A stretch of 64,000 bases of DNA. It comes from Thermosipho melanesiensis BI429 (lineage in GTDB: Bacteria > Thermotogota > Thermotogae > Thermotogales > Fervidobacteriaceae). Position 1 is the first letter of the stretch, and each line of letters starts with the position of its first letter. Where the stretch lies: contig NC_009616.1 of NCBI RefSeq assembly GCF_000016905.1, positions 1,488,001 through 1,552,000 on the forward strand. Direction: 5' to 3'. The notes beneath the pieces were generated by a model. It ran no database searches, was not told where the DNA came from, and saw only the letters and a program-made list of their open reading frames with translations. Position numbers and translations under genes: made by a program. This document shows positions 22,704 through 32,983 of this stretch, in pieces.

Positions 22704-23134
22704 AATTCCACCTCAAATTTATCTACCTCAATGGCAGCATTCAATAAAATTTCTTTGAATTTTTTCCATTCATTTATTGTGTTTCTTTTTGTTAGATGTT
22801 GTATACATTTTTCGCTTTCACGTGGTTCTAATAATAGACAACCACTTGGTCGTTTTTCTAATGAAAGTTTACATCCTTTTTCAGTTAAAAATACACATTC
22901 ACCAGAAATTGCATGATCGAATATGTAAAATTTTCTACCTTTTATAGAAGGTCTTACAAAGTACTCTTCATTTTTGTCCCAATCAATAGACCATTTTCCG
23001 GATTTAAAGGCTTTAATTAAATTTTTAAATATTTCTTCTTTTGTATTGCCAAAATCTTTTGGAAGGGCAATTCCAGGGTAATTTTTACAGCACTTTCCTT
23101 GACATTTTTTACAAAGTTCAATATTAACATACAT
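22700..23134 (-). CDS. YkgJ-like (CxxCxxxCC) metal-binding protein
   Basis: 144 residues from the ATG at 23134 (GAGGGTG 6 bases before it); a GTG at 23143 is part of the ribosome site region. The N-terminal cysteine cluster C-K-K-C-Q-G-K-C-C is followed by further cysteines in G-E-C-V-F-L, G-C-K-L, and R-P-S-G-C-L-L-L-E-P, which match the zinc/iron-chelating YkgJ family. The precise function is unknown. The start overlaps the dnaE end by 11 bases and the end overlaps the MMPL gene by 4 bases. Confidence 0.8.
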   Translation of the reverse strand: MYVNIELCKKCQGKCCKNYPGIALPKDFGNTKEEIFKNLIKAFKSGKWSIDWDKNEEYFVRPSIKGRKFYIFDHAISGECVFLTEKGCKLSLEKRPSGCLLLEPRESEKCIQHLTKRNTINEWKKFKEILLNAAIEVDKFEVEL

Positions 23135-25595
23135 CACTTTCACCCTCTATTAGTATTTTGTAATCATCAAAAACGGGTCTTGCACTTTTTATTTTTAACT
23201 TTTTATCGACTATTTCAACAAATTCATTTTCATTACCTTTTTCTATGAAAAGTTTTGATGGGAGTTGGTCAATTACATATATTGCTTTTTTTATTCCGGG
23301 AAATATTTTTATCTCTTTATCATTAATGATTGTGTAAACACCGTCTGGTACATTTAGTTTTATTGTTGTAACTCCATCACTTACATAACCGCCAACTGCT
23401 TTTACGTTAATGGCTAATTTTTGCTCACGGGATAGTGCTACTGAAAGTGGTGATAAAAGGTTTTTAAATTCATCAAAGGGCTTTGAAATACAAAAACCTA
23501 ATGTGTTATATTCCATATCACATCTTTCCCATAGTTTTTCTATTTTTATTTCATTTGAAAAATTTTTTCCAAATAAGCTACTGGAAAGTTCAAGAATTTT
23601 TTCGTTTACTCCACTCCTAATTTCTTTTAATTTCATTAACAATTTTCTTCTACTTTCTGATAAATAATCAAAACTTCCTATTTTTATCAAAGATTCTACT
23701 ATAGAAAAGTTTATATTTGGGTTTTTTTCAAAAAAACCTTTTAAAGAATTATATGGGGCATTTGCTATTATTTCCTTTTCAATTTTTTCGTTTATTCCTT
23801 TTACAAGTGTTAGCGGTATGTGAAATTCTTTTTTGTTTTCCGGATTTCCATTAATATTTGGTGGTAATATTTTAAAACCTCTTGATTGCATTTCGAAAAT
23901 TATTTTTTCAATTTTTGTTGTATCGTACTTTAAAAGGGTTGAGTAAAAATCCTTAGGAAAGTGTTTTTTGAAATATGCTAATGAGTAAGAAATATATGAA
24001 TATGCAATTGCGTGTGATTTGTTAAAAGCATATTCTGAAAATTCTAATATTATCTTTATTAATTCATTTGTTTCATTTTCCGATAGTATGTTTAAAATGT
24101 TTTTTTTCAACTTTTTTATTAGAGGTTCTACCAATTTTTTTTCTTTTTTAGCTATACCTTTTCTTAATACATCTGCCTCTTCATTTGAAAAGTTTGCGTA
24201 TTTTTTAGCTATTAACATTATTTGCTCTTGAAAGACTATTATTCCAAAAGTGTCATTTAGAAGTTCAAAGCTTTTTTTTCTCTGTTTCCATTTTGCAATG
24301 GCTAATTCCCTATCTAATTTTGCTTTGAGAGGGCCAGGTCTATTTAATGAAATTACAATGGAGAGTTCATCTATTGAACTTGGTTTTATTGCTCTGATTA
24401 TTCTTTTTGATATATTACTTTCAAGTTGGAATATACCATTTGTATATCCTTTTGATATGAAGTTAAAAGTGATTTTGTCAAGTTTTGGTTTTCCAATTTT
24501 TTTTTCAAGTTTATTCATTATGGTTAATGTTTTAAGACCTAAGATGTCAAATTTTATATATCCAATTTTGTTTAAGGAATCCATGTCCCATTCTATTACA
24601 TCTTCTTTAATGGGCACTTTGATAGGAGTTTTCGAAATAATTATTCCAGCTGCATGAACGCTTTTGTGAGTGGGGAGTCCTAAAAGGTCACTTAGTTCAG
24701 ATGTGGAAATTTTGTATTCATTTGCGATTTTTTTAATTGTTTTTGGACCAATGTTTGAAAAAGTACTTATGTAGTAGACATATTTAAATTCTTTTTTTAG
24801 TAATTCTATTAACTCTTTTCTTTTTTCATCTTCAACATCTAGATCTATGTCTGGTGGTTCTTTTCGACCTTTGTTTAAGAATCTTTCGAATAGCAAATTG
24901 TGTTTTATTGGGTCAATTTTAGTTATTCCTAACATATATGAAAGTAGTGACCCTACCGCACTTCCACGTCCCGGACCAATTGCTATATCATGTTCTTTGG
25001 CAATTTTTGTTATTTTATATACTGTATGAAAGTAATCTAAGAAGTTTTTTTCCTTTATTATTTCTAATTCACGTATTAGCCTTTCTTTATATACGTTGTT
25101 TTTTATTTTATTTACATCTATAAAATTTTTTGGAGCGGTTGGAAGGGTTTGAAAGGATTTTAGCTTGTAACCATAGGCCTCTAAATTACAGTAAATGTTT
25201 TTTAACACACCTTTCTCTACGCATTTTACACCCAAGACATTACAGAATAGCTCGTAGATTCTTCGTTTTCCTGGAAAGTAATATGCAAGGTATACATCGT
25301 CTTTATCTATGTAATTAAGTTTTAGTGAGGAAAAATTATTCGTGTTATAAGCATTGAAAAGTTCGTATAACTCTTCCGTGTTTTTTGCATAGTATATTTT
25401 GTCGTTATAAAGGTACGATATTATAGGAGTAATTTTATATTTTTGACATTCTTCAATAAATTTTACTGTTGCGTGAAAATTTGTATCACATAACAACAAA
25501 GAATTTACACCTTGTTTATGTGCGAACTTTACCACTTCTTCTAATTTTAATATAGAACCTTTAAAAGAGTACGGGGATACAATAGCTGTGATCAT
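23124..25595 (-). CDS. dnaE: DNA polymerase III alpha subunit, short DnaE-type with degenerate PHP domain
   Basis: 823 residues against about 1100-1160 for standard DnaE. The polymerase core is intact: G-P-G-R-G-S-A-V-G-S (palm), the catalytic pair in P-P-D-I-D-L-D, the third aspartate in K-F-D-I-L-G-L-K-T-L, and helix-hairpin-helix and OB-like segments near the end. The N-terminal PHP domain has lost the expected metal ligands: the H-x-H motif is replaced (V-S-P-Y-S-F-K-G-S) and D-H-G reads D-T-N. The Thermotogae are known to carry a PolC as main replicase plus a short DnaE-type enzyme, so this is probably the secondary polymerase. ATG overlaps the rpe stop (ATGA) with no strong ribosome site, so coupling is likely. 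Confidence 0.88.
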   Translation of the reverse strand: MITAIVSPYSFKGSILKLEEVVKFAHKQGVNSLLLCDTNFHATVKFIEECQKYKITPIISYLYNDKIYYAKNTEELYELFNAYNTNNFSSLKLNYIDKDDVYLAYYFPGKRRIYELFCNVLGVKCVEKGVLKNIYCNLEAYGYKLKSFQTLPTAPKNFIDVNKIKNNVYKERLIRELEIIKEKNFLDYFHTVYKITKIAKEHDIAIGPGRGSAVGSLLSYMLGITKIDPIKHNLLFERFLNKGRKEPPDIDLDVEDEKRKELIELLKKEFKYVYYISTFSNIGPKTIKKIANEYKISTSELSDLLGLPTHKSVHAAGIIISKTPIKVPIKEDVIEWDMDSLNKIGYIKFDILGLKTLTIMNKLEKKIGKPKLDKITFNFISKGYTNGIFQLESNISKRIIRAIKPSSIDELSIVISLNRPGPLKAKLDRELAIAKWKQRKKSFELLNDTFGIIVFQEQIMLIAKKYANFSNEEADVLRKGIAKKEKKLVEPLIKKLKKNILNILSENETNELIKIILEFSEYAFNKSHAIAYSYISYSLAYFKKHFPKDFYSTLLKYDTTKIEKIIFEMQSRGFKILPPNINGNPENKKEFHIPLTLVKGINEKIEKEIIANAPYNSLKGFFEKNPNINFSIVESLIKIGSFDYLSESRRKLLMKLKEIRSGVNEKILELSSSLFGKNFSNEIKIEKLWERCDMEYNTLGFCISKPFDEFKNLLSPLSVALSREQKLAINVKAVGGYVSDGVTTIKLNVPDGVYTIINDKEIKIFPGIKKAIYVIDQLPSKLFIEKGNENEFVEIVDKKLKIKSARPVFDDYKILIEGESDVC

Positions 25596-26293: not shown

Positions 26294-27091
26294 GTGAAGG
26301 GAAAATTATTAGAGACTGTTGAATATATTTCCAAAAGAATTTCAATGTGGCCTGAGATTGGTTTAATTTTAGGTTCTGGTCTTGGTTTTATGGCTGATAA
26401 AATAGAAAATTCAATAGAAATTTTTTATAGAGATATTCCAAATTTTCCTCGTTCAACTGTACCAGGACATGAGGGAAACCTTGTTTTTGGAAAATTAGCT
26501 GAGAAAAATGTTGTAGCATTAAAAGGTAGATTTCATTTGTACGAAGGATGGTCTGCTGAAGTAATAAAGTTTGTAATTTATGTTTTAAAGAAATTAGGTG
26601 TGAGAAAGTTAATTATCACAAATGCTGCAGGTGGTATAAATAAATCATTAAAGCCTGGTGATATTGTTTTGGTAAAGGATATTATAAACTTTCAATTTAG
26701 AAATCCACTAAGAGGAATTAACGATGGAGAATTTGGGCCTAGATTTCCAGACATGTCTAGTATTTTAGATAAAGATTGGGCAAAAAGGTTGCAAGAGTAT
26801 TTTGATTTGCCTGAAGGTGTGTATATGGCAGTATTAGGACCAAGCTATGAAACTCCTGCAGAGATAAAGGCGTTTAGAAAATTAGGGGCTGATCTTGTCG
26901 GAATGTCTACTGTACCAGAGATAATTGCTGCAAGGCATTGTAGGATAGACTGTTTGGTTTTATCTTGTGTTACGAATATGGCAGCCGGAGTTTTAAATGT
27001 TCCACTCTCACATAAAGAAGTTGTAGAAGTTGCAAATAGAGTCAAAGGTAAATTTTCAGAGATAGTCTTGAAAGCTTTGGAGGTGTTTTAA
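26294..27091 (+). CDS. punA: Purine nucleoside phosphorylase (PNP/MTAP family)
   Basis: 265 residues, trimeric PNP class. Motifs: G-S-G-L-G-F (phosphate loop), V-P-G-H-E-G-N, G-R-F-H-L-Y-E-G, N-A-A-G-G-I-N, G-P-S-Y-E-T-P-A-E, V-G-M-S-T-V-P-E and the base-binding region S-C-V-T-N-M-A-A-G. It splits purine nucleosides with phosphate, feeding salvage with hpt in the same window. GTG start after GAGGAGGTG. The next gene begins at the base after its stop. Confidence 0.95.
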   Translation: MKGKLLETVEYISKRISMWPEIGLILGSGLGFMADKIENSIEIFYRDIPNFPRSTVPGHEGNLVFGKLAEKNVVALKGRFHLYEGWSAEVIKFVIYVLKKLGVRKLIITNAAGGINKSLKPGDIVLVKDIINFQFRNPLRGINDGEFGPRFPDMSSILDKDWAKRLQEYFDLPEGVYMAVLGPSYETPAEIKAFRKLGADLVGMSTVPEIIAARHCRIDCLVLSCVTNMAAGVLNVPLSHKEVVEVANRVKGKFSEIVLKALEVF

Positions 27092-28075
27092 TTGGTGGCA
27101 AATGAATTTTTGAATATTGTTGGTACTTTAAATGAAGCACAAAAAATTTTGGTAGTCGGTCATATTATGCCTGATGGTGATGATATAAGTTCGGTTTTAT
27201 CTTTATTTTTGGGGTTAAAGAGTTTAGGAAAACAGGTTGTTGCTGCAATTGATTGGAAAATTCCAAGTTATTTTTTTGAAATAGAAGAGGTAAAGTATAT
27301 AAAGAATTATGAAGAAATAGATGTGTATGATTTTAATCCCGATATTATAGTTATTTTAGATGCATCAAGCCCAGATAGGGTTGGAAGATTTTCAGATGTG
27401 TTGAACGATTTTAAGGTTATTGTGATTGATCATCATGCTACTAATACTTATTTTGGGGATATAAACTGGGTAGATTCAACATATGCCGCAACTGCTCAAA
27501 TGGTACTGAGAGTTAATAAAGAGTTGCAAGTGGAATATGATGAGAGGCTTTCTTTGATAAATTTAATGGGTATAGAAACTGATACAGGTTTTTTTAGGTA
27601 TTCAAATGCAAATGAACGTGTTTTTAGAGATGTGGCAAGTTTGATTTCACTTGGTGCAAAGCCTGATTTTATTGCAAGAATGATACTTGAAAATAGAAGA
27701 TTGGAGCAATTTAAATTGCTATCAAGGATGATTGATAATCTGAAGTTAGAATGTGACGGAAAGTTAGCGTACTCTTATCTTTCAAAAAAAGATTACGAAG
27801 AATTTAACTGTACAGATGAAGATAGTGGCGGATTTGTAGGTGAAATTCGTTCGATAAAAGGAGTAGAAGTTGCTATATTTTTCTATGAATATGTAAAAGG
27901 AGAGGTTCATATAAGTTTTAGATCTAAAGAATGGTTTGATGTAAGTAAAGTTGCGTTTACATTAGGGGGAGGGGGTCATCCAAGGGCTGCAGGTGTAACT
28001 TTAAATGGAAATTTAGAAGAGATTGTTAGAGATGTTGTTAAACTGACAAAGGCAAATTTTGATTTAAAAAGTTAG
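27092..28075 (+). CDS. nrnA: DHH/DHHA1 phosphoesterase, NrnA-type oligoribonuclease / pAp phosphatase
   Basis: 327 residues. DHH domain with D-G-D-D-I-S (motif I-like, in H-I-M-P-D-G-D-D), an aspartate in V-I-L-D-A-S, and the D113-H114-H115 triad (V-I-D-H-H-A-T-N). DHHA1 RNA-binding motif G-G-G-G-H-P-R-A-A-G near the C-terminus. Such enzymes degrade short RNA oligomers and pAp; related forms hydrolyse pGpG, the breakdown product of cyclic di-GMP, which is notable because the next gene encodes a diguanylate cyclase. Start TTG at 27092 with GGAGG 8 bases upstream. Confidence 0.9.
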   Translation: MVANEFLNIVGTLNEAQKILVVGHIMPDGDDISSVLSLFLGLKSLGKQVVAAIDWKIPSYFFEIEEVKYIKNYEEIDVYDFNPDIIVILDASSPDRVGRFSDVLNDFKVIVIDHHATNTYFGDINWVDSTYAATAQMVLRVNKELQVEYDERLSLINLMGIETDTGFFRYSNANERVFRDVASLISLGAKPDFIARMILENRRLEQFKLLSRMIDNLKLECDGKLAYSYLSKKDYEEFNCTDEDSGGFVGEIRSIKGVEVAIFFYEYVKGEVHISFRSKEWFDVSKVAFTLGGGGHPRAAGVTLNGNLEEIVRDVVKLTKANFDLKS

Positions 28076-28098
28076 CTTTCGTTTCCAAGGGGGTAGTT

Positions 28099-31000
28099 AT
28101 GAATATAGTAAAATTTTTTAGAAACACTTACAATGGACCTGAATACATTGTAGATGTTGATGGCAATTTAAAAAGAATGAAAATATTGGACAAAAAATCG
28201 ATTGGAAGTTTTTTGGAATTATCCAATTACTTTAATTTGGTGAATTATATAAGCACTTTTTTAAAGCCTGAAAGGTATGAAATTGAAACTGAAAAAGCAG
28301 TGCTATATTTTTCGTATAGTGGTGAAGAATCTGTAAAATTGGAAGATCTTTCGTTGGATTTAAAAAAAGAACTTTCTGTTTTATTGTTAAATTTGGTCCA
28401 AGAAATTTATCATATTCCAAATTTGTATTTTCCAGTTTTTTCTGTTGATGATATTTTAATAAAAGGTAATTCATTTGTTATTCAACCACCTATTTGGACA
28501 AAAAAGAAAGAGATACCTGATAGTAAAGAAAATTTATTTATTGCCCCAGAGTTTATAAAGAAAAAGGAAATAAATGAAAAATCTTCAATTTATGTTATTG
28601 GGAAGGTAATTGAAAAATTAGGAATATATGAATTAAAAAGAATAGTTGAAGAAATGGTGGTTGAAGATTTTACAAAAAGAAGTGTTCATTTTGCAATGCC
28701 CAGTGTTTTTAAAAGTTTTTTAGAACTAAACTTTGTCGTTCCAACTATTCAACGACCTGAACTTAATGAATTAATGAATGTTTTAAATTTAAGAGAATCA
28801 GTTTTTATTGGTGTGGTTGGAGAACAAAGAATGGGTAAAACTACTTTGTTAAATCTACTCCAAGAAAGGCTTGTATCGGAGGGAAAACTTGTAATTAGGG
28901 CTACAGGTATAGCTCAATTTGTTTTGCAACTATTACAAATTGCCGCGGGAAAGGCAGATGAGGATATTTTAAGCCAGATAGAAAATATTATTAATAATGG
29001 TGGAAAAGTGGATACCTTAGTTCCACTAGTTGGAAGTGTTATTGATGATTTGGAGCAATTATTTGTATTAGTGGATGATTACCAAGAGAAATTTGACAAT
29101 TTTAAAGTGTTTCTAAAAGAGCTATTTTCACTGAATTTTAAAGTTAAACATAAAGTTGTTGCATTTTCCACTGAAAAATTTAGTGATTTTGATAAAGTTA
29201 TTTATTTAAAACCGTTTAGTAAAGGTCAAATTGAGGAATTGTTGACAAAAACATTTTTTAATCTGGAAAGAAAAGAAGTTTTTAGTGATTTTCTATACAA
29301 AGTTAGTAATGGATATCCTGGTATTTTAGTTGAGGTTTTAAGGACATTAGTAGAAAAAGGCTTATTGAGAAAAAATGTTGAGAAAGATTCTTGGGAATGT
29401 GAATTAGAGAAATTAGGAGATTTTGATTTTGAGAATATTTTTGATGTTTTTGATGGGTTGAATAAGGAATATTTTGAAAAGTTGAAGTATTTATCAGTAC
29501 TTGGGCAAAAATTTACGGATGATGAGATAGAACTTTTGGAAGGTGTAATTGGCTGGAGTTTTTCAGATATAATTAAGGTGGCAGAGAATAAAGGTATATT
29601 GTATAGAGAATATTCAAATTTGAGGTTTACGTTGAGACAATATTGGGAAAGATTATACGATACTGTAGAAAATAAAAAGCAATTGCATAAAAAACTTATA
29701 TGCCAGTATTTAAAACTTGATTTTTTTGGAGTTTATCAGAAAGTTGCATGGCATTTTAGAATGATTGGGGATGAGAGGAAAGCTTTGATATATTATTTGA
29801 AATCTATTAAGAGAGGTTTGGAAAAATATTACTCTCCCAACATTTTGCGGGAAATGATTGCTGAAGCTGAAAAATTGCTTCCAAAAAATAAATATTTATA
29901 TTCACTGATAAGATATAAAGTTGAGATTTATTATAGAGTGTTTAGGGAGATAGATTTTGAGATTCCGGATAAAAAGATATTTGAGTATTGGAAAATTGCA
30001 GCAAAATATGTTAATCAAAAAAACAAAGAAGTAGTTGAATTTTTTGAAAAGGATAAAGATAGGTTAAAAGGTTTTGGAAAATTTGGTACATATAGAAGGG
30101 TTTTACTCTATTATTATGCCTTATTTAATTTGAGGATGTATGAAAAAATCGATATTTTAACTTTGGAAAAAATTTCTAAGATCCCTGAAGTTGAATCTAA
30201 ATTTGTTTTAGAGTTAAAAGTTAGAGCGCTGATTTTACTTGGAAGTATAATTTCTAATAGAGATAGGGTTCTAGCAGAACATTATTATGAAGAGGCCAAA
30301 ACTATTGCGAAAGAAAAGGGGTTATTTCATTTTCTGCCTACTATTTATAATAATTTATCTATTAATATTGGTAATTTAGTTATTGCAAATCAATTATATG
30401 ATAAAGCGATTTATTATTCTGAAATAATTGGTTTAACTAATTTATCAATCACTTCAAAAATAAATAAAATTCAAAGTATGCTTTATATGGGTGATATAAA
30501 TAAATTTTTTGTGGAGCTTTTAAAGCTTCGTAGAATTTTGGAATTGAAAGATTTAAAATTTGAACTAGCAGAGACTTATAAATTAGAAGCGTTGTATCAT
30601 GTTTATAATAGGGAATTTGAAGATGGTTTGAAAGATATAATGGTTGCAAGAAATATTTTGGAAAAATTACAGTTGGGAAGTTCATATTTGCGGTTATTGT
30701 TTTTACTTTACGTATTTACGGAAAAAATAAACTATGTAAGGAATATGTACAATGAAAATAAAGATGCTAGAGATTTGAAAGATTGGGGATTTAGCTATTT
30801 TGTTAAGTTAGTTTTTGCGGAGAATGATGAAGATTTTAGAAAAATATGGGAAGAATATAGAGATTCTGAGGTTTTTTTATGGCGAGAAGAGATCTTTGCA
30901 ATTTTTGGTGAAAAGATTGCAAAGGTTGATCCAGAGGGCTTTTTTGAACAACTTAGATTTTTTGAAAAAAATTACGCAACTCAGGGTTTGAAATTATCAC

Positions 31001-32118
31001 TTGCAATGTTATATGAAGGTTTTGCAAAGTACTATAAAACATTAGGAAAAGATTACAGATACGGTTTGTATATTTCAAAGGCTTATTCTCTGTATAGAGA
31101 GATGGGATTTGAAAATTATGTGGAAATTTTGGAAAAGAAAGAGATTTTTAAAATGAATCCATACTTTAAGAAATCTTTGGATTTGACAAAGGTGTATGAT
31201 AATAAGAACTTGTCGAAAGAGTTGCGGGACTATTTTTCAAAGACAAGTTTTGCAATGGGAATATTAGAAGAATTGAAAGCGATAGAAGAAATAGAAGAAC
31301 CTCAAAATATTGTTAACTACTTTGCAAGTAAAATTTTACAGATCTTACCCGTAAATGGAATAGAGATATTTGTTAAAGATGTACAAATTGGTCAAGATTT
31401 CAAATTTTCAAGTGTGGAAAACGTTGAAAGAAGAGATTTAATAGAAAAAAACCCTTTAAGGGTTAAAATTTCAGATAAAATTGACAAATATTTAGATTAT
31501 TATATATATATTTCAAATGAAAAACTAAATATAGATGATGAGGAATTGTCAAATATATTGGAAATATTAAAAATTGTAGAATTTGGATTTATTACTGCTA
31601 TAAAATCTTCTTTATTAAGATTGAGGAGTTTTTTGGATCCACTTACAAAGTTGTATACCAGATATTATTTTGCGGAAAAGATAGATGAATATTTTGAAAA
31701 AGCGAAAAAATTTAAGGAAAGACTTTCTATTATTATGTGCGACTTGGATCATTTTAAAAAGATAAATGACAAATATGGTCACCTACTTGGAGATGAAGTT
31801 TTAAGAGAGATTGCAAAAATTTTGAAAGAAAATGTAAGAAGAAACAACGATATAGTCGGAAGATATGGTGGAGAGGAGTTTATAATACTACTTCCAAATT
31901 CTTCTTTAAATTATGCAAAAGAAATTGCAGAAAGATTGAGAAAGAAGATAGAAGCTATTGATAAATTTCCTTTTAAAGTTACAATGAGTTTTGGTATAGC
32001 AAGTTATCCAGAAGTTTTGGTTAAAACTTCTGATGAATTGGTTGGTTATGCAGATGATGCTTTGTATAAAGCAAAAGAACTTGGAAGGAATAGGGTGATT
32101 GTTTTTGAAGTTAATTGA
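28099..32118 (+). CDS. Large signalling protein: kinase-like N-terminus, STAND ATPase, helical repeats, GAF-like, GGDEF
   Basis: 1339 residues. About 1-190 recalls a degenerate protein-kinase fold (F-I-A-P-E-F resembles the APE motif) without a visible catalytic loop. A STAND/AAA ATPase follows, with Walker A G-E-Q-R-M-G-K-T-T at 241-249 and Walker B-like L-F-V-L-V-D-D near 321-327. From about 420 to 1040 there are TPR-like helical repeats. A GAF-like domain (about 1045-1180) precedes a C-terminal GGDEF domain with G-G-E-E-F at 1257-1261. The product-inhibition I-site R-x-x-D (R-N-N-D) lies five residues before it, so cyclic di-GMP synthesis with feedback is expected. AGGGGG lies before the ATG. 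The gene end overlaps murB. The input signal is unknown. Confidence 0.88.
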   Translation: MNIVKFFRNTYNGPEYIVDVDGNLKRMKILDKKSIGSFLELSNYFNLVNYISTFLKPERYEIETEKAVLYFSYSGEESVKLEDLSLDLKKELSVLLLNLVQEIYHIPNLYFPVFSVDDILIKGNSFVIQPPIWTKKKEIPDSKENLFIAPEFIKKKEINEKSSIYVIGKVIEKLGIYELKRIVEEMVVEDFTKRSVHFAMPSVFKSFLELNFVVPTIQRPELNELMNVLNLRESVFIGVVGEQRMGKTTLLNLLQERLVSEGKLVIRATGIAQFVLQLLQIAAGKADEDILSQIENIINNGGKVDTLVPLVGSVIDDLEQLFVLVDDYQEKFDNFKVFLKELFSLNFKVKHKVVAFSTEKFSDFDKVIYLKPFSKGQIEELLTKTFFNLERKEVFSDFLYKVSNGYPGILVEVLRTLVEKGLLRKNVEKDSWECELEKLGDFDFENIFDVFDGLNKEYFEKLKYLSVLGQKFTDDEIELLEGVIGWSFSDIIKVAENKGILYREYSNLRFTLRQYWERLYDTVENKKQLHKKLICQYLKLDFFGVYQKVAWHFRMIGDERKALIYYLKSIKRGLEKYYSPNILREMIAEAEKLLPKNKYLYSLIRYKVEIYYRVFREIDFEIPDKKIFEYWKIAAKYVNQKNKEVVEFFEKDKDRLKGFGKFGTYRRVLLYYYALFNLRMYEKIDILTLEKISKIPEVESKFVLELKVRALILLGSIISNRDRVLAEHYYEEAKTIAKEKGLFHFLPTIYNNLSINIGNLVIANQLYDKAIYYSEIIGLTNLSITSKINKIQSMLYMGDINKFFVELLKLRRILELKDLKFELAETYKLEALYHVYNREFEDGLKDIMVARNILEKLQLGSSYLRLLFLLYVFTEKINYVRNMYNENKDARDLKDWGFSYFVKLVFAENDEDFRKIWEEYRDSEVFLWREEIFAIFGEKIAKVDPEGFFEQLRFFEKNYATQGLKLSLAMLYEGFAKYYKTLGKDYRYGLYISKAYSLYREMGFENYVEILEKKEIFKMNPYFKKSLDLTKVYDNKNLSKELRDYFSKTSFAMGILEELKAIEEIEEPQNIVNYFASKILQILPVNGIEIFVKDVQIGQDFKFSSVENVERRDLIEKNPLRVKISDKIDKYLDYYIYISNEKLNIDDEELSNILEILKIVEFGFITAIKSSLLRLRSFLDPLTKLYTRYYFAEKIDEYFEKAKKFKERLSIIMCDLDHFKKINDKYGHLLGDEVLREIAKILKENVRRNNDIVGRYGGEEFIILLPNSSLNYAKEIAERLRKKIEAIDKFPFKVTMSFGIASYPEVLVKTSDELVGYADDALYKAKELGRNRVIVFEVN

Positions 32119-32983
32119 TACTTTATTGAAATTGGGAAATGATGTTCATATAAATGAAAAAATGAAATGTCATGTGAGTTTTAAAATAGGAGGACCTGTG
32201 AGGTTATTTATAATACCGTATACAGTTGATATGTTTTTGGAGACTTTAAATGTTTTGGATAACGTAAAAATCTTAGGAAATGGAACAAATGTGTTACCTA
32301 AAGATGAATATATGGACTTTAATGTTATTTCAACTGAAAAACTTACAGGGATTTTTGTGGAGAATGACACGATAATTTGCGAAAGTGGACTCAGTTTAAA
32401 AAAGTTATGTTTATATGCGGCAAAAGAAGGTTTTTCAGGTTTTGAAAATGCTTATGGAATCCCCGGGAGTGTTGGTGGAGCCGCCTATATGAATGCCGGA
32501 GCCTTTGGATGGGAAACGGCGGAAATGATTGAGTTTGTTGACGTTTATGATGGAAAAAAAGTATTGAGATTAGATAGGACAGAGATGAAATTTTCATATA
32601 GAAACAGTATTTTTAAAGAAAACGAAGATTTGATTATTTTAAGAGTTGGATTTCGGATAATAAAAGGAGATAGTTATAATATTTTTTCAAGAATGAAACA
32701 GGTAATGATAAAAAGGGTGGAAAAGCAACCTTTGGAGTTTCCAAGTGCTGGAAGTGTTTTTAAAAGGCCAAGAAAAGGTTTTTACGTGGGAAGTGCCATT
32801 GAAAAAATAGGTTTAAAAGGTTTTAGAATAGGTGGAGCAATGATTTCAGAAAAACATGCAGGATTTATAATAAATTATAACAACGCAAAATCCTCTGATG
32901 TGAAAGATATGATTGAACTTGTAAAGGATAAAATTTATAAAAATTTTGGTGTAAAATTGGAAACTGAGATAGAAATTTGGTAA
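32105..32983 (+). CDS. murB: UDP-N-acetylenolpyruvoylglucosamine reductase MurB
   Basis: 292 residues from the TTG at 32105, which is 7 bases after GGGTG; a TTG at 32099 is also possible. FAD-binding motifs G-N-G-T-N-V-L and Y-G-I-P-G-S-V-G-G-A-A-Y-M-N-A-G-A-F-G, the catalytic region S-Y-R-N-S-I-F, and P-S-A-G-S-V-F-K-R-P with the active-site serine. It makes UDP-N-acetylmuramate for peptidoglycan. It overlaps the end of the GGDEF gene by 14 bases. Confidence 0.94.
   Translation: MKLIDTLLKLGNDVHINEKMKCHVSFKIGGPVRLFIIPYTVDMFLETLNVLDNVKILGNGTNVLPKDEYMDFNVISTEKLTGIFVENDTIICESGLSLKKLCLYAAKEGFSGFENAYGIPGSVGGAAYMNAGAFGWETAEMIEFVDVYDGKKVLRLDRTEMKFSYRNSIFKENEDLIILRVGFRIIKGDSYNIFSRMKQVMIKRVEKQPLEFPSAGSVFKRPRKGFYVGSAIEKIGLKGFRIGGAMISEKHAGFIINYNNAKSSDVKDMIELVKDKIYKNFGVKLETEIEIW

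What the first reader, a model, noticed from the sequence alone, without database searches (positions are those of the whole stretch)
28099..32118. Kinase-like / STAND ATPase / repeat / GAF-like / GGDEF protein next to NrnA
This 1339-residue protein joins a degenerate kinase-like part, a STAND NTPase switch, long helical repeats and a GGDEF domain with an intact G-G-E-E-F and a correctly spaced I-site. It would couple an NTP-driven sensor to cyclic di-GMP synthesis. The gene before it encodes a DHH enzyme of the type that can clear pGpG, the cyclic di-GMP breakdown product, which hints at a make-and-clear module.
Basis: partly seen in the sequence, partly recalled or inferred. Interest (0 to 1): 0.5.

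Follow-up and report, generated by a model that had tools for sequence, protein, structure and literature searches.

The report
STAND-switched cyclic di-GMP synthase
A large, conserved protein of heat-loving bacteria appears to join a dead kinase, an ATP-driven switch and a long helical sensor to an enzyme that makes the signal cyclic di-GMP; in one order its gene sits beside a housekeeping gene that may clear that signal's breakdown product.

Summary
The gene at 28099-32118 is real (1339 aa). 53 of 103 genomes of its phylum match its non-GGDEF part. All 42 complete main copies examined (from 44 of those 53 genomes) keep P-loop and GGEEF; 41 of 42 keep an RxxD I-site five residues before GGEEF. 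Residues 1-205 look like a pseudokinase: profile comparison finds kinases in register, with the catalytic loop and DFG gone. Next come a STAND-type ATPase and TPR-like helices. The GAF label is not confirmed. Best reading: a MalT/NLR-like ATP switch whose output is a canonical, product-inhibited diguanylate cyclase.

The neighbour is the orthologue of Thermotoga maritima TM1595, a solved DHH/DHHA1 phosphodiesterase. The pair is adjacent in 39 of 39 genomes of this order with the family, including family f2, where the other two local neighbours are elsewhere. But DHH is in 102 of 103 genomes, is adjacent in 0 of 14 outside the order (two not judgeable), and should serve the genome's many cyclases. 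A dedicated make-and-clear module is possible, not shown.

Genera g2/g3 carry a tandem copy without P-loop and I-site but with GGEEF: a natural experiment on both controls. New variant of known kinds.

The parts
28099..32118 (+). Complete gene, 1339 aa: pseudokinase - STAND ATPase - TPR-like helices - linker (GAF-like, unproven) - GGDEF
28087..28093 (+). Shine-Dalgarno-like AAGGGGG, 5 bases before the ATG
   Evidence: read
28099..28713 (+). Kinase-like domain, residues 1-205, predicted catalytically dead (pseudokinase)
   Evidence: no Pfam hit in the window protein
28543..28551 (+). A-P-E motif, residues 149-151, followed by the helix-F-like SSIYVIG
28744..29388 (+). STAND-type P-loop ATPase core, residues about 216-430 (R219 invariant in 26 rows)
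28819..28842 (+). Walker A GEQRMGKT, residues 241-248
   Evidence: 42 of 42 complete main copies keep GxxxxGK[ST]
29074..29079 (+). Walker B Asp326-Asp327
29311..29322 (+). G-x-P-G, residues 405-408, at the place of the STAND GxP motif
   Evidence: motif name recalled
29686..31188 (+). Helical TPR-like sensor region, residues about 530-1030 (borders approximate)
   Evidence: TPR_12 in 14 of 35 members
31216..31608 (+). Linker domain, residues about 1040-1170; GAF identity unproven
31624..32115 (+). GGDEF (diguanylate cyclase) domain, residues 1176-1339
31840..31851 (+). I-site RNND, residues 1248-1251
31867..31881 (+). A-site GGEEF, residues 1257-1261
   Evidence: 42 of 42 complete main copies
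27092..28075 (+). DHH/DHHA1 phosphodiesterase gene (NrnA type, orthologue of TM1595), 23 bases upstream of the main gene
26294..27091 (+). Purine nucleoside phosphorylase gene, frequent partner of the DHH gene
32099..32983 (+). murB, overlapping the end of the main gene by 20 bases (if the TTG start is right)
   Evidence: next to the family only in f1

Best explanation
A soluble diguanylate cyclase gated by a STAND switch. At rest the ATPase core holds ADP and is kept closed by the TPR-like helical sensor (inferred by analogy with MalT and PH0952). An unknown inducer binding the helical sensor and/or the N-terminal pseudokinase lets ATP in; the protein opens and multimerises. This brings C-terminal GGDEF domains together in pairs, and they make c-di-GMP from two GTP. 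Product bound at the RxxD site shuts the cyclase off again. Shown here: the parts, their order and the conservation of their key residues across 42 complete main copies. Inferred: nucleotide exchange, oligomerisation, inducer and direction of control. In the window's order the gene is kept, on the same strand, directly behind an NrnA-type DHH phosphodiesterase gene that probably can finish c-di-GMP breakdown (pGpG to GMP). The likeliest meaning of the pairing is shared expression, not a dedicated circuit; co-transcription was not tested.
For: GGDEF E 1.3e-46; GGEEF in 42 of 42 and RxxD in 41 of 42 complete main copies. D1215, N1223 and D1232 are invariant in 35 of 35; their spacing (8 and 9 residues) matches Asp126, Asn134 and Asp143 of T. 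maritima tDGC, which bind Mg and guanine (PMC4215984, passages). The Asp/GGEEF combination made a test enzyme solely a diguanylate cyclase in PMC6456294 (passages). Walker A in 42 of 42; D326, G405, G408 invariant and P407 at least 90% in 26 rows. AAA_16 above cut-off in L080. In a PDB profile search 2fna (an archaeal STAND-like ATPase, recalled) matches residues 373-513 at E 0.0013; most of the other 39 hits are general P-loop proteins. TPR_12 in 14 of 35. Kinase-like part. Three shorter relatives with helices plus GGDEF, no ATPase match in Pfam, suggest that the gate is a separable module. Neighbourhood. NrnA cleaves pGpG: PMC6256023 (passages). STAND model: abstract of PMC6468293 and start of the abstract of PMC4381067 (listing).
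Against: No activity, nucleotide binding or oligomer state can be tested here. The ATPase of the window protein itself stays below every Pfam cut-off. Structure models failed. GGDEF proteins with intact motifs need not be active cyclases, so motif integrity is not proof of synthesis. The tandem copies in g2/g3 have kept GGEEF without a P-loop over a long branch, so the cyclase can be maintained without ATP switching. One of 42 main copies (L062, same genus as the window) lacks the strict I-site. In f3 and f10 the kinase-like APE stretch is missing.
Confidence: 0.62

Rival explanations
1. The DHH and cyclase genes form a functional make-and-clear pair: the DHH enzyme specifically terminates the signal made by this cyclase, perhaps in a complex. 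(The rivals are not mutually exclusive with the main reading or with each other.)
For: Adjacent and same strand in 39 of 39 genomes of the order that hold the family. In family f2 the pair stands in 11 of 11 although the purine phosphorylase gene is next to DHH in only 1 of 11 and murB next to the family in 0 of 11. With the first start codon taken, the two genes overlap by 4-151 bases in 14 of 15 f2/f3 loci mapped. NrnA cleaves pGpG, and a B. subtilis mutant lacking both nrnA and nrnB has raised c-di-GMP (PMC6256023, passages). No Orn match in this genome.
Against: DHH is in 102 of 103 genomes, the family in 53; outside the order 0 of 14 are adjacent. About 14 other GGDEF places, 12 HD-GYP and 1 EAL in this genome make pGpG a common pool. 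NrnA also degrades short RNA (title and abstract start of PMC9757072). T. maritima has the pair, yet EAL did not ring there, and the Orn model did ring there, so the DHH enzyme may not be alone. Genomes of one family share ancestry, so the counts are not independent.
Confidence: 0.25
2. The protein is chiefly a c-di-GMP receptor or scaffold: the I-site senses c-di-GMP and feeds back on the STAND hub; synthesis is minor.
For: The I-site is almost as conserved as the A-site (41 of 42 against 42 of 42); STAND proteins usually act as hubs.
Against: The catalytic residues D1215, N1223, D1232 and GGEEF are invariant in 35 of 35, which is not expected of a mere receptor.
Confidence: 0.1
3. The N-terminal domain is an active, unusual kinase rather than a pseudokinase.
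For: Kinase-like register over 158 columns; K25 and R26 invariant in 8 of 8 f1 rows and D118 at least 90% in 22 rows.
Against: At the aligned places the HxD Asp and the DFG Asp are absent. In f3 and f10 the APE stretch is missing too.
Confidence: 0.05
4. The gene order is plain hitch-hiking of an ancestral purine operon with no functional link at all.
For: Purine phosphorylase and DHH genes are neighbours in 26 of 39 genomes of the order with the family and in 8 of 14 outside it, so the cyclase gene may simply have landed downstream of an old gene pair.
Against: In f2 the only one of three local pairs present throughout is DHH-cyclase: 11 of 11, against 1 of 11 and 0 of 11. This is one family, hence perhaps one event.
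Confidence: 0.4

Closest known systems
STAND ATPases with TPR sensor (MalT; PH0952 of Pyrococcus; AfsR; PknK recalled)
   Same: P-loop core with hhhDD and GxP, followed by a long TPR-like helical sensor; presumably an ADP/ATP switch and multimerisation
   Different: Output is a C-terminal diguanylate cyclase, not DNA binding; the N-terminus is a pseudokinase
Stand-alone and sensor-linked diguanylate cyclases (PleD, WspR, T. maritima tDGC/TM1788)
   Same: GG(D/E)EF, Mg and guanine residues, RxxD I-site with the right spacing
   Different: The gate is a STAND ATPase with helical repeats instead of PAS, GAF, REC or HAMP
Hybrid kinase - AAA - GAF - histidine kinase proteins (HstK of Anabaena, fungal group X kinases; recalled, no call found them)
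   Same: Order kinase-like domain, ATPase, helices, GAF, then an output enzyme
   Different: Kinase part is degenerate, GAF is unproven and the output is GGDEF instead of histidine kinase
TM1595 / TmPDE of T. maritima (PDB 5O1U and others), NrnA family
   Same: The DHH gene of the window is its orthologue (58% identical to the copy in G090, whose protein contains the TM1595 stretch exactly) and the family gene is its neighbour there too
   Different: Nothing notable found

Membership tests
Diguanylate cyclase (GGDEF) | Whole GGDEF domain above curated cut-off | tested here: met
   158.8 bits against 23.8
Diguanylate cyclase (GGDEF) | A-site GG(D/E)EF with Mg Asp and guanine-binding Asn/Asp | tested here: met
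   GGEEF in 42 of 42 complete main copies; D1215, N1223, D1232 invariant in 35 of 35
Diguanylate cyclase (GGDEF) | RxxD I-site five residues before GGEEF (optional feature) | tested here: met
   Window RNND; 41 of 42 complete main copies, 0 of 10 tandem copies
Diguanylate cyclase (GGDEF) | Synthesis of c-di-GMP | not testable with these tools
   needs an enzyme assay
Hypr GGDEF (cGAMP synthase) | Ser/Thr in place of the guanine-specificity Asp, together with GGDE[F/Y] | tested here: not met
   D1232 and GGEEF; criterion from PMC6456294 passages; that D1232 is the matching position is inferred from spacing to tDGC Asp143
STAND ATPase | Walker A and hhhhD[D/E] Walker B | tested here: met
   Walker A in 42 of 42; D326 invariant in 26 of 26
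STAND ATPase | GxP motif after the ATPase core | tested here: met
   G405 and G408 invariant, P407 at least 90% in 26 rows; motif recalled
STAND ATPase | Curated STAND/AAA model above cut-off | tested here: inconclusive
   Below cut-off for the window protein, above for relative L080 with AAA_16; two nSTAND models in 8 and 7 of 35 at E <= 0.05
STAND ATPase | ADP/ATP exchange and inducer-driven multimerisation | not testable with these tools
   needs protein
Ser/Thr (Hanks) protein kinase | Kinase fold | tested here: inconclusive
   Profile support; single-sequence AlphaFold model failed
Ser/Thr (Hanks) protein kinase | Catalytic HxD and DFG aspartates | tested here: not met
   Absent at the aligned places; hence pseudokinase, not kinase
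GAF domain | Profile match to GAF | tested here: inconclusive
NrnA / DHH-DHHA1 phosphodiesterase (neighbour) | DHH and DHHA1 domains, homology to solved NrnA enzymes | tested here: met
   Pfam; TM1595 E 1.8e-115; the NCBIfam NrnA model is matched below its cut-off, 117.7 against 350
Anti-phage defence protein | Convincing match to a PADLOC model | tested here: not met
   Window protein: only mad8 at E 0.0041 on the P-loop stretch 227-272

The most novel reading that the evidence does not exclude
An NLR-like (STAND) assembly whose effector is second-messenger synthesis. [quoted passage not shown] In the g2/g3 genera a duplicated partner that lacks both the P-loop and the I-site adds an ungated, feedback-free cyclase half-site to mixed assemblies.
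Probability: 0.22. Interest if true: 0.68.

Novelty: new variant of a known kind. Interest (0 to 1): 0.45.

Why it matters
c-di-GMP synthesis is normally gated by small sensor domains (PAS, GAF, REC, HAMP). A phylum-wide family that puts it under a STAND ATPase would link the switch of NLR/MalT-type receptors to c-di-GMP. It would give a soluble system, probably thermostable, for structure work. The natural duplicate that lacks P-loop and I-site, but kept the active-site motif, makes the roles of both controls directly testable. The T. maritima orthologue sits beside TM1595, an enzyme whose structure is solved.

Tried and rejected
GAF identity of residues 1040-1170: PDB profile, Pfam and hhalign gave no convincing support. 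Defence role: no PADLOC match beyond P-loop noise, and in the tree each genome family's main copies group together, which speaks against a roaming island gene. Hypr/cGAMP synthase: rejected (D1232, GGEEF). A genome-contig scan with the window protein returned three loci, all matching only in the C-terminal part (residues 1102-1331 or less), so relatives outside the phylum were not established either way. Promoter/terminator scan was uninformative: 70 promoter-like sites against 59.9 (sd 7.9) in shuffles, 5 terminator-like against 3.0 (sd 2.3). The first hhalign run (83.9%) contained wrong-strand translations; it was redone with the strands corrected, 14 of 16 chosen kinases kept; only the second, lower result is used.

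Literature searches that found no description of a STAND-gated diguanylate cyclase in their listings: (open-licence PMC papers only; listings, with passages of one paper). No paper there names TM1594; that this would be the T. maritima gene's name is a guess from the TM1595 number. TM1595 substrate data (pApA, pGpG; Drexler 2017) are recalled; that paper was seen only in reference lists.

Counts and rows left out: 53 genomes match. In G025 the only match is a short relative without ATPase (L169), in G044 only a 463-aa frame. 44 of the 53 (window plus 43 loci L062-L104) gave sequences for the motif counts; nine were not fetched whole (G025, G044, G045, G047, G048, G059, G065, G077, G096). Of 54 sequences, 42 are complete main copies, 10 tandem copies, 2 incomplete (L078 at a contig end, L097 broken); the tree used 52. 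Alignments used 35 (A1), 22 (A3), 25 (A4) and 26 (A5) of these. The GAF comparison used 24 of 25 chosen rows. The distance cut-off missed 5 of 20 f1 genomes, because the weak match to the tandem copy begins inside its gene; the ORF map shows them adjacent, so 34 by script plus 5 by map make 39 of 39. In G077 the main copy lies on another contig and the tandem copy is the neighbour. Of the 14 genomes outside the order, G048 has no DHH match and G010's copy begins at a contig end, so 12 can be judged.
Full report
What is there. The ORF 28099-32118 (+) starts with ATG behind AAGGGGG and encodes 1339 aa. The window is 1488001-1552000 of a 1,915,238-base single-contig genome. From memory that size is Thermosipho melanesiensis; no call names it, and 'Thermotogota' and 'Thermotogales' below rest on the T. 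maritima match and on recall. Three same-genus genomes hold the full-length protein at 65, 54 and 54% identity. A search with residues 1-1164, leaving out the GGDEF domain, matches in 53 of 103 genomes of the phylum; in one of these, G025, only a short relative is found. In the tree of 52 sequences the main copies of each genome family group together, which suggests inheritance within these lineages.

C-terminal output. Pfam GGDEF matches at E 1.3e-46. GGEEF is present in 42 of 42 complete main copies examined and RxxD, five residues before it, in 41 of 42; the exception is L062. D1215, N1223 and D1232 are invariant in 35 of 35 aligned members; their spacing equals that of the Mg- and guanine-binding residues of tDGC of T. 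maritima (PMC4215984, passages). The Asp plus GGEEF combination is diguanylate-only in the mutants of PMC6456294 (passages). The inference is that the domain makes c-di-GMP and is product-inhibited.

The switch and the sensor. Residues 216-430 hold GEQRMGKT, LVDD and GYPG, with R219, G241, G246, K247, D326, G405 and G408 invariant in 26 aligned rows. Pfam AAA models see the window protein weakly (AAA_22, 20.7 against a cut-off of 27 bits), but AAA_16 passes its cut-off in L080. A PDB profile search finds 2fna on residues 373-513 at E 0.0013, among 40 hits that are mostly general P-loop proteins. The helical region gives TPR_12 in 14 of 35 members at E <= 0.05. MalT and PH0952 are the archetypes: ADP-closed, ATP-open, multimerising, with a TPR sensor (abstract of PMC6468293).

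The N-terminus. Residues 1-205 carry A-P-E, then S-x-x-Y-V-x-G, then E-D-x-x-x-R, as in the kinase C-lobe; relative L091 reads APEILDGK...ASDTYVLGKIL...DEDPKVRPSHF. A profile of 22 members gives 111 PDB sequences up to E 10; of the 60 shown 57 are named kinases, in that register, but the best E-value is 0.045 and many rows are copies of IRAK4 or JAK2. Against 14 kinases of the phylum hhalign gives probability 64.6 and score 39.7; 100 column shuffles reach at most 1.34 and 20.6; four unrelated families at most 0.32 and 17.7. The catalytic HxD and DFG aspartates are missing at the aligned places. This is a pseudokinase by sequence; its fold was not shown, since the single-sequence model failed. 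In f3 and f10 even the APE stretch is missing.

What was not confirmed. The stretch before the GGDEF domain (1040-1170) is conserved but was not shown to be GAF: no GAF among PDB profile hits, one weak Pfam hit in 25 members, hhalign 4.9% against at most 0.74% for shuffles.

The module is built from parts. Three shorter proteins in families f7 and f9 (L166 865 aa, L168 826 aa, L169 892 aa) match the helical part and end in GGDEF, with no ATPase or kinase match in Pfam. In genera g2 and g3 (Fervidobacterium by recall) a tandem copy stands between the DHH gene and the main copy. All 10 tandem copies examined, of 11 matched, lack the P-loop at the aligned place and the I-site but keep GGEEF. They form one group with 100% SH-aLRT. 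The cyclase can thus exist with or without the gate, and in this one lineage gate motif and feedback site are both missing.

The neighbour. The upstream gene is the orthologue of TM1595 (E 1.8e-115 to PDB 5o1u). The DHH protein of genome G090 contains the TM1595 stretch exactly, so G090 is T. maritima or a very near strain, and its copy of the family (1206 aa) overlaps the DHH gene by 53 bases if the first start codon is used. Adjacency of DHH gene and family: f1 20 of 20, f2 11 of 11, f3 8 of 8, other orders 0 of 14, of which 12 can be judged. Local controls: family to murB 18 of 20, 0 of 11, 0 of 8, 0 of 14; purine phosphorylase to DHH 18 of 20, 1 of 11, 7 of 8, 8 of 14. So in f2 only the DHH-cyclase link is present throughout, which argues against pure hitch-hiking, though f2 may be a single event. 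Against a dedicated circuit: DHH is in 102 of 103 genomes. Six genomes of f3 have DHH without the family. The window genome has 16 GGDEF matches (this one included, two of them pieces of one broken gene), 12 HD-GYP over the cut-off, 1 EAL and 1 PilZ. Published work shows that NrnA cleaves pGpG, that a B. subtilis nrnA nrnB double mutant has more c-di-GMP, and that V. cholerae HD-GYP proteins did not raise pGpG cleavage in lysates of cells lacking Orn (PMC6256023, passages). The window genome has no Orn match, but the T. maritima control did ring with the Orn model; NrnB and NrnC were not tested. The DHH enzyme is therefore a likely general end-point of c-di-GMP breakdown here.

Verdict. The mechanism - STAND-gated, product-inhibited c-di-GMP synthesis - is the best reading (0.62). 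The make-and-clear module is a live but weaker idea (0.25). I found no description of a STAND-gated diguanylate cyclase in the listings, which cover open-licence papers only. It is a new variant of known kinds.

Noticed in passing
L070-L079, e.g. L070:4743-8330: Tandem second copy of the family in genera g2 and g3 that lacks P-loop and I-site but keeps GGEEF; one group in the tree.
   Followed up: partly
L166:3492-6089 (-), L168:3463-5943 (+), L169:3251-5929 (+): Shorter TPR-like-GGDEF relatives without ATPase or kinase match; in L166 and L168 beside an anaerobic ribonucleotide reductase-like gene (named by eye).
   Followed up: partly
L097:8262-11192 and 11171 onward: In genome G092 the family gene is split into 976 aa and a 258-aa GGDEF piece, either a real break or an assembly error.
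   Followed up: no
G000:C1:862404-862886: A broken GGDEF gene with several stops in the window's genome.
   Followed up: no
window 23124-25595 (-): A short (823 aa) DNA polymerase III alpha-like protein, smaller than usual; identified by eye only.
   Followed up: no
G000:C1:814318-815865: An HD-GYP match and a GGDEF match lie within 1.6 kb on the same strand, a possible make-and-break c-di-GMP pair.
   Followed up: no
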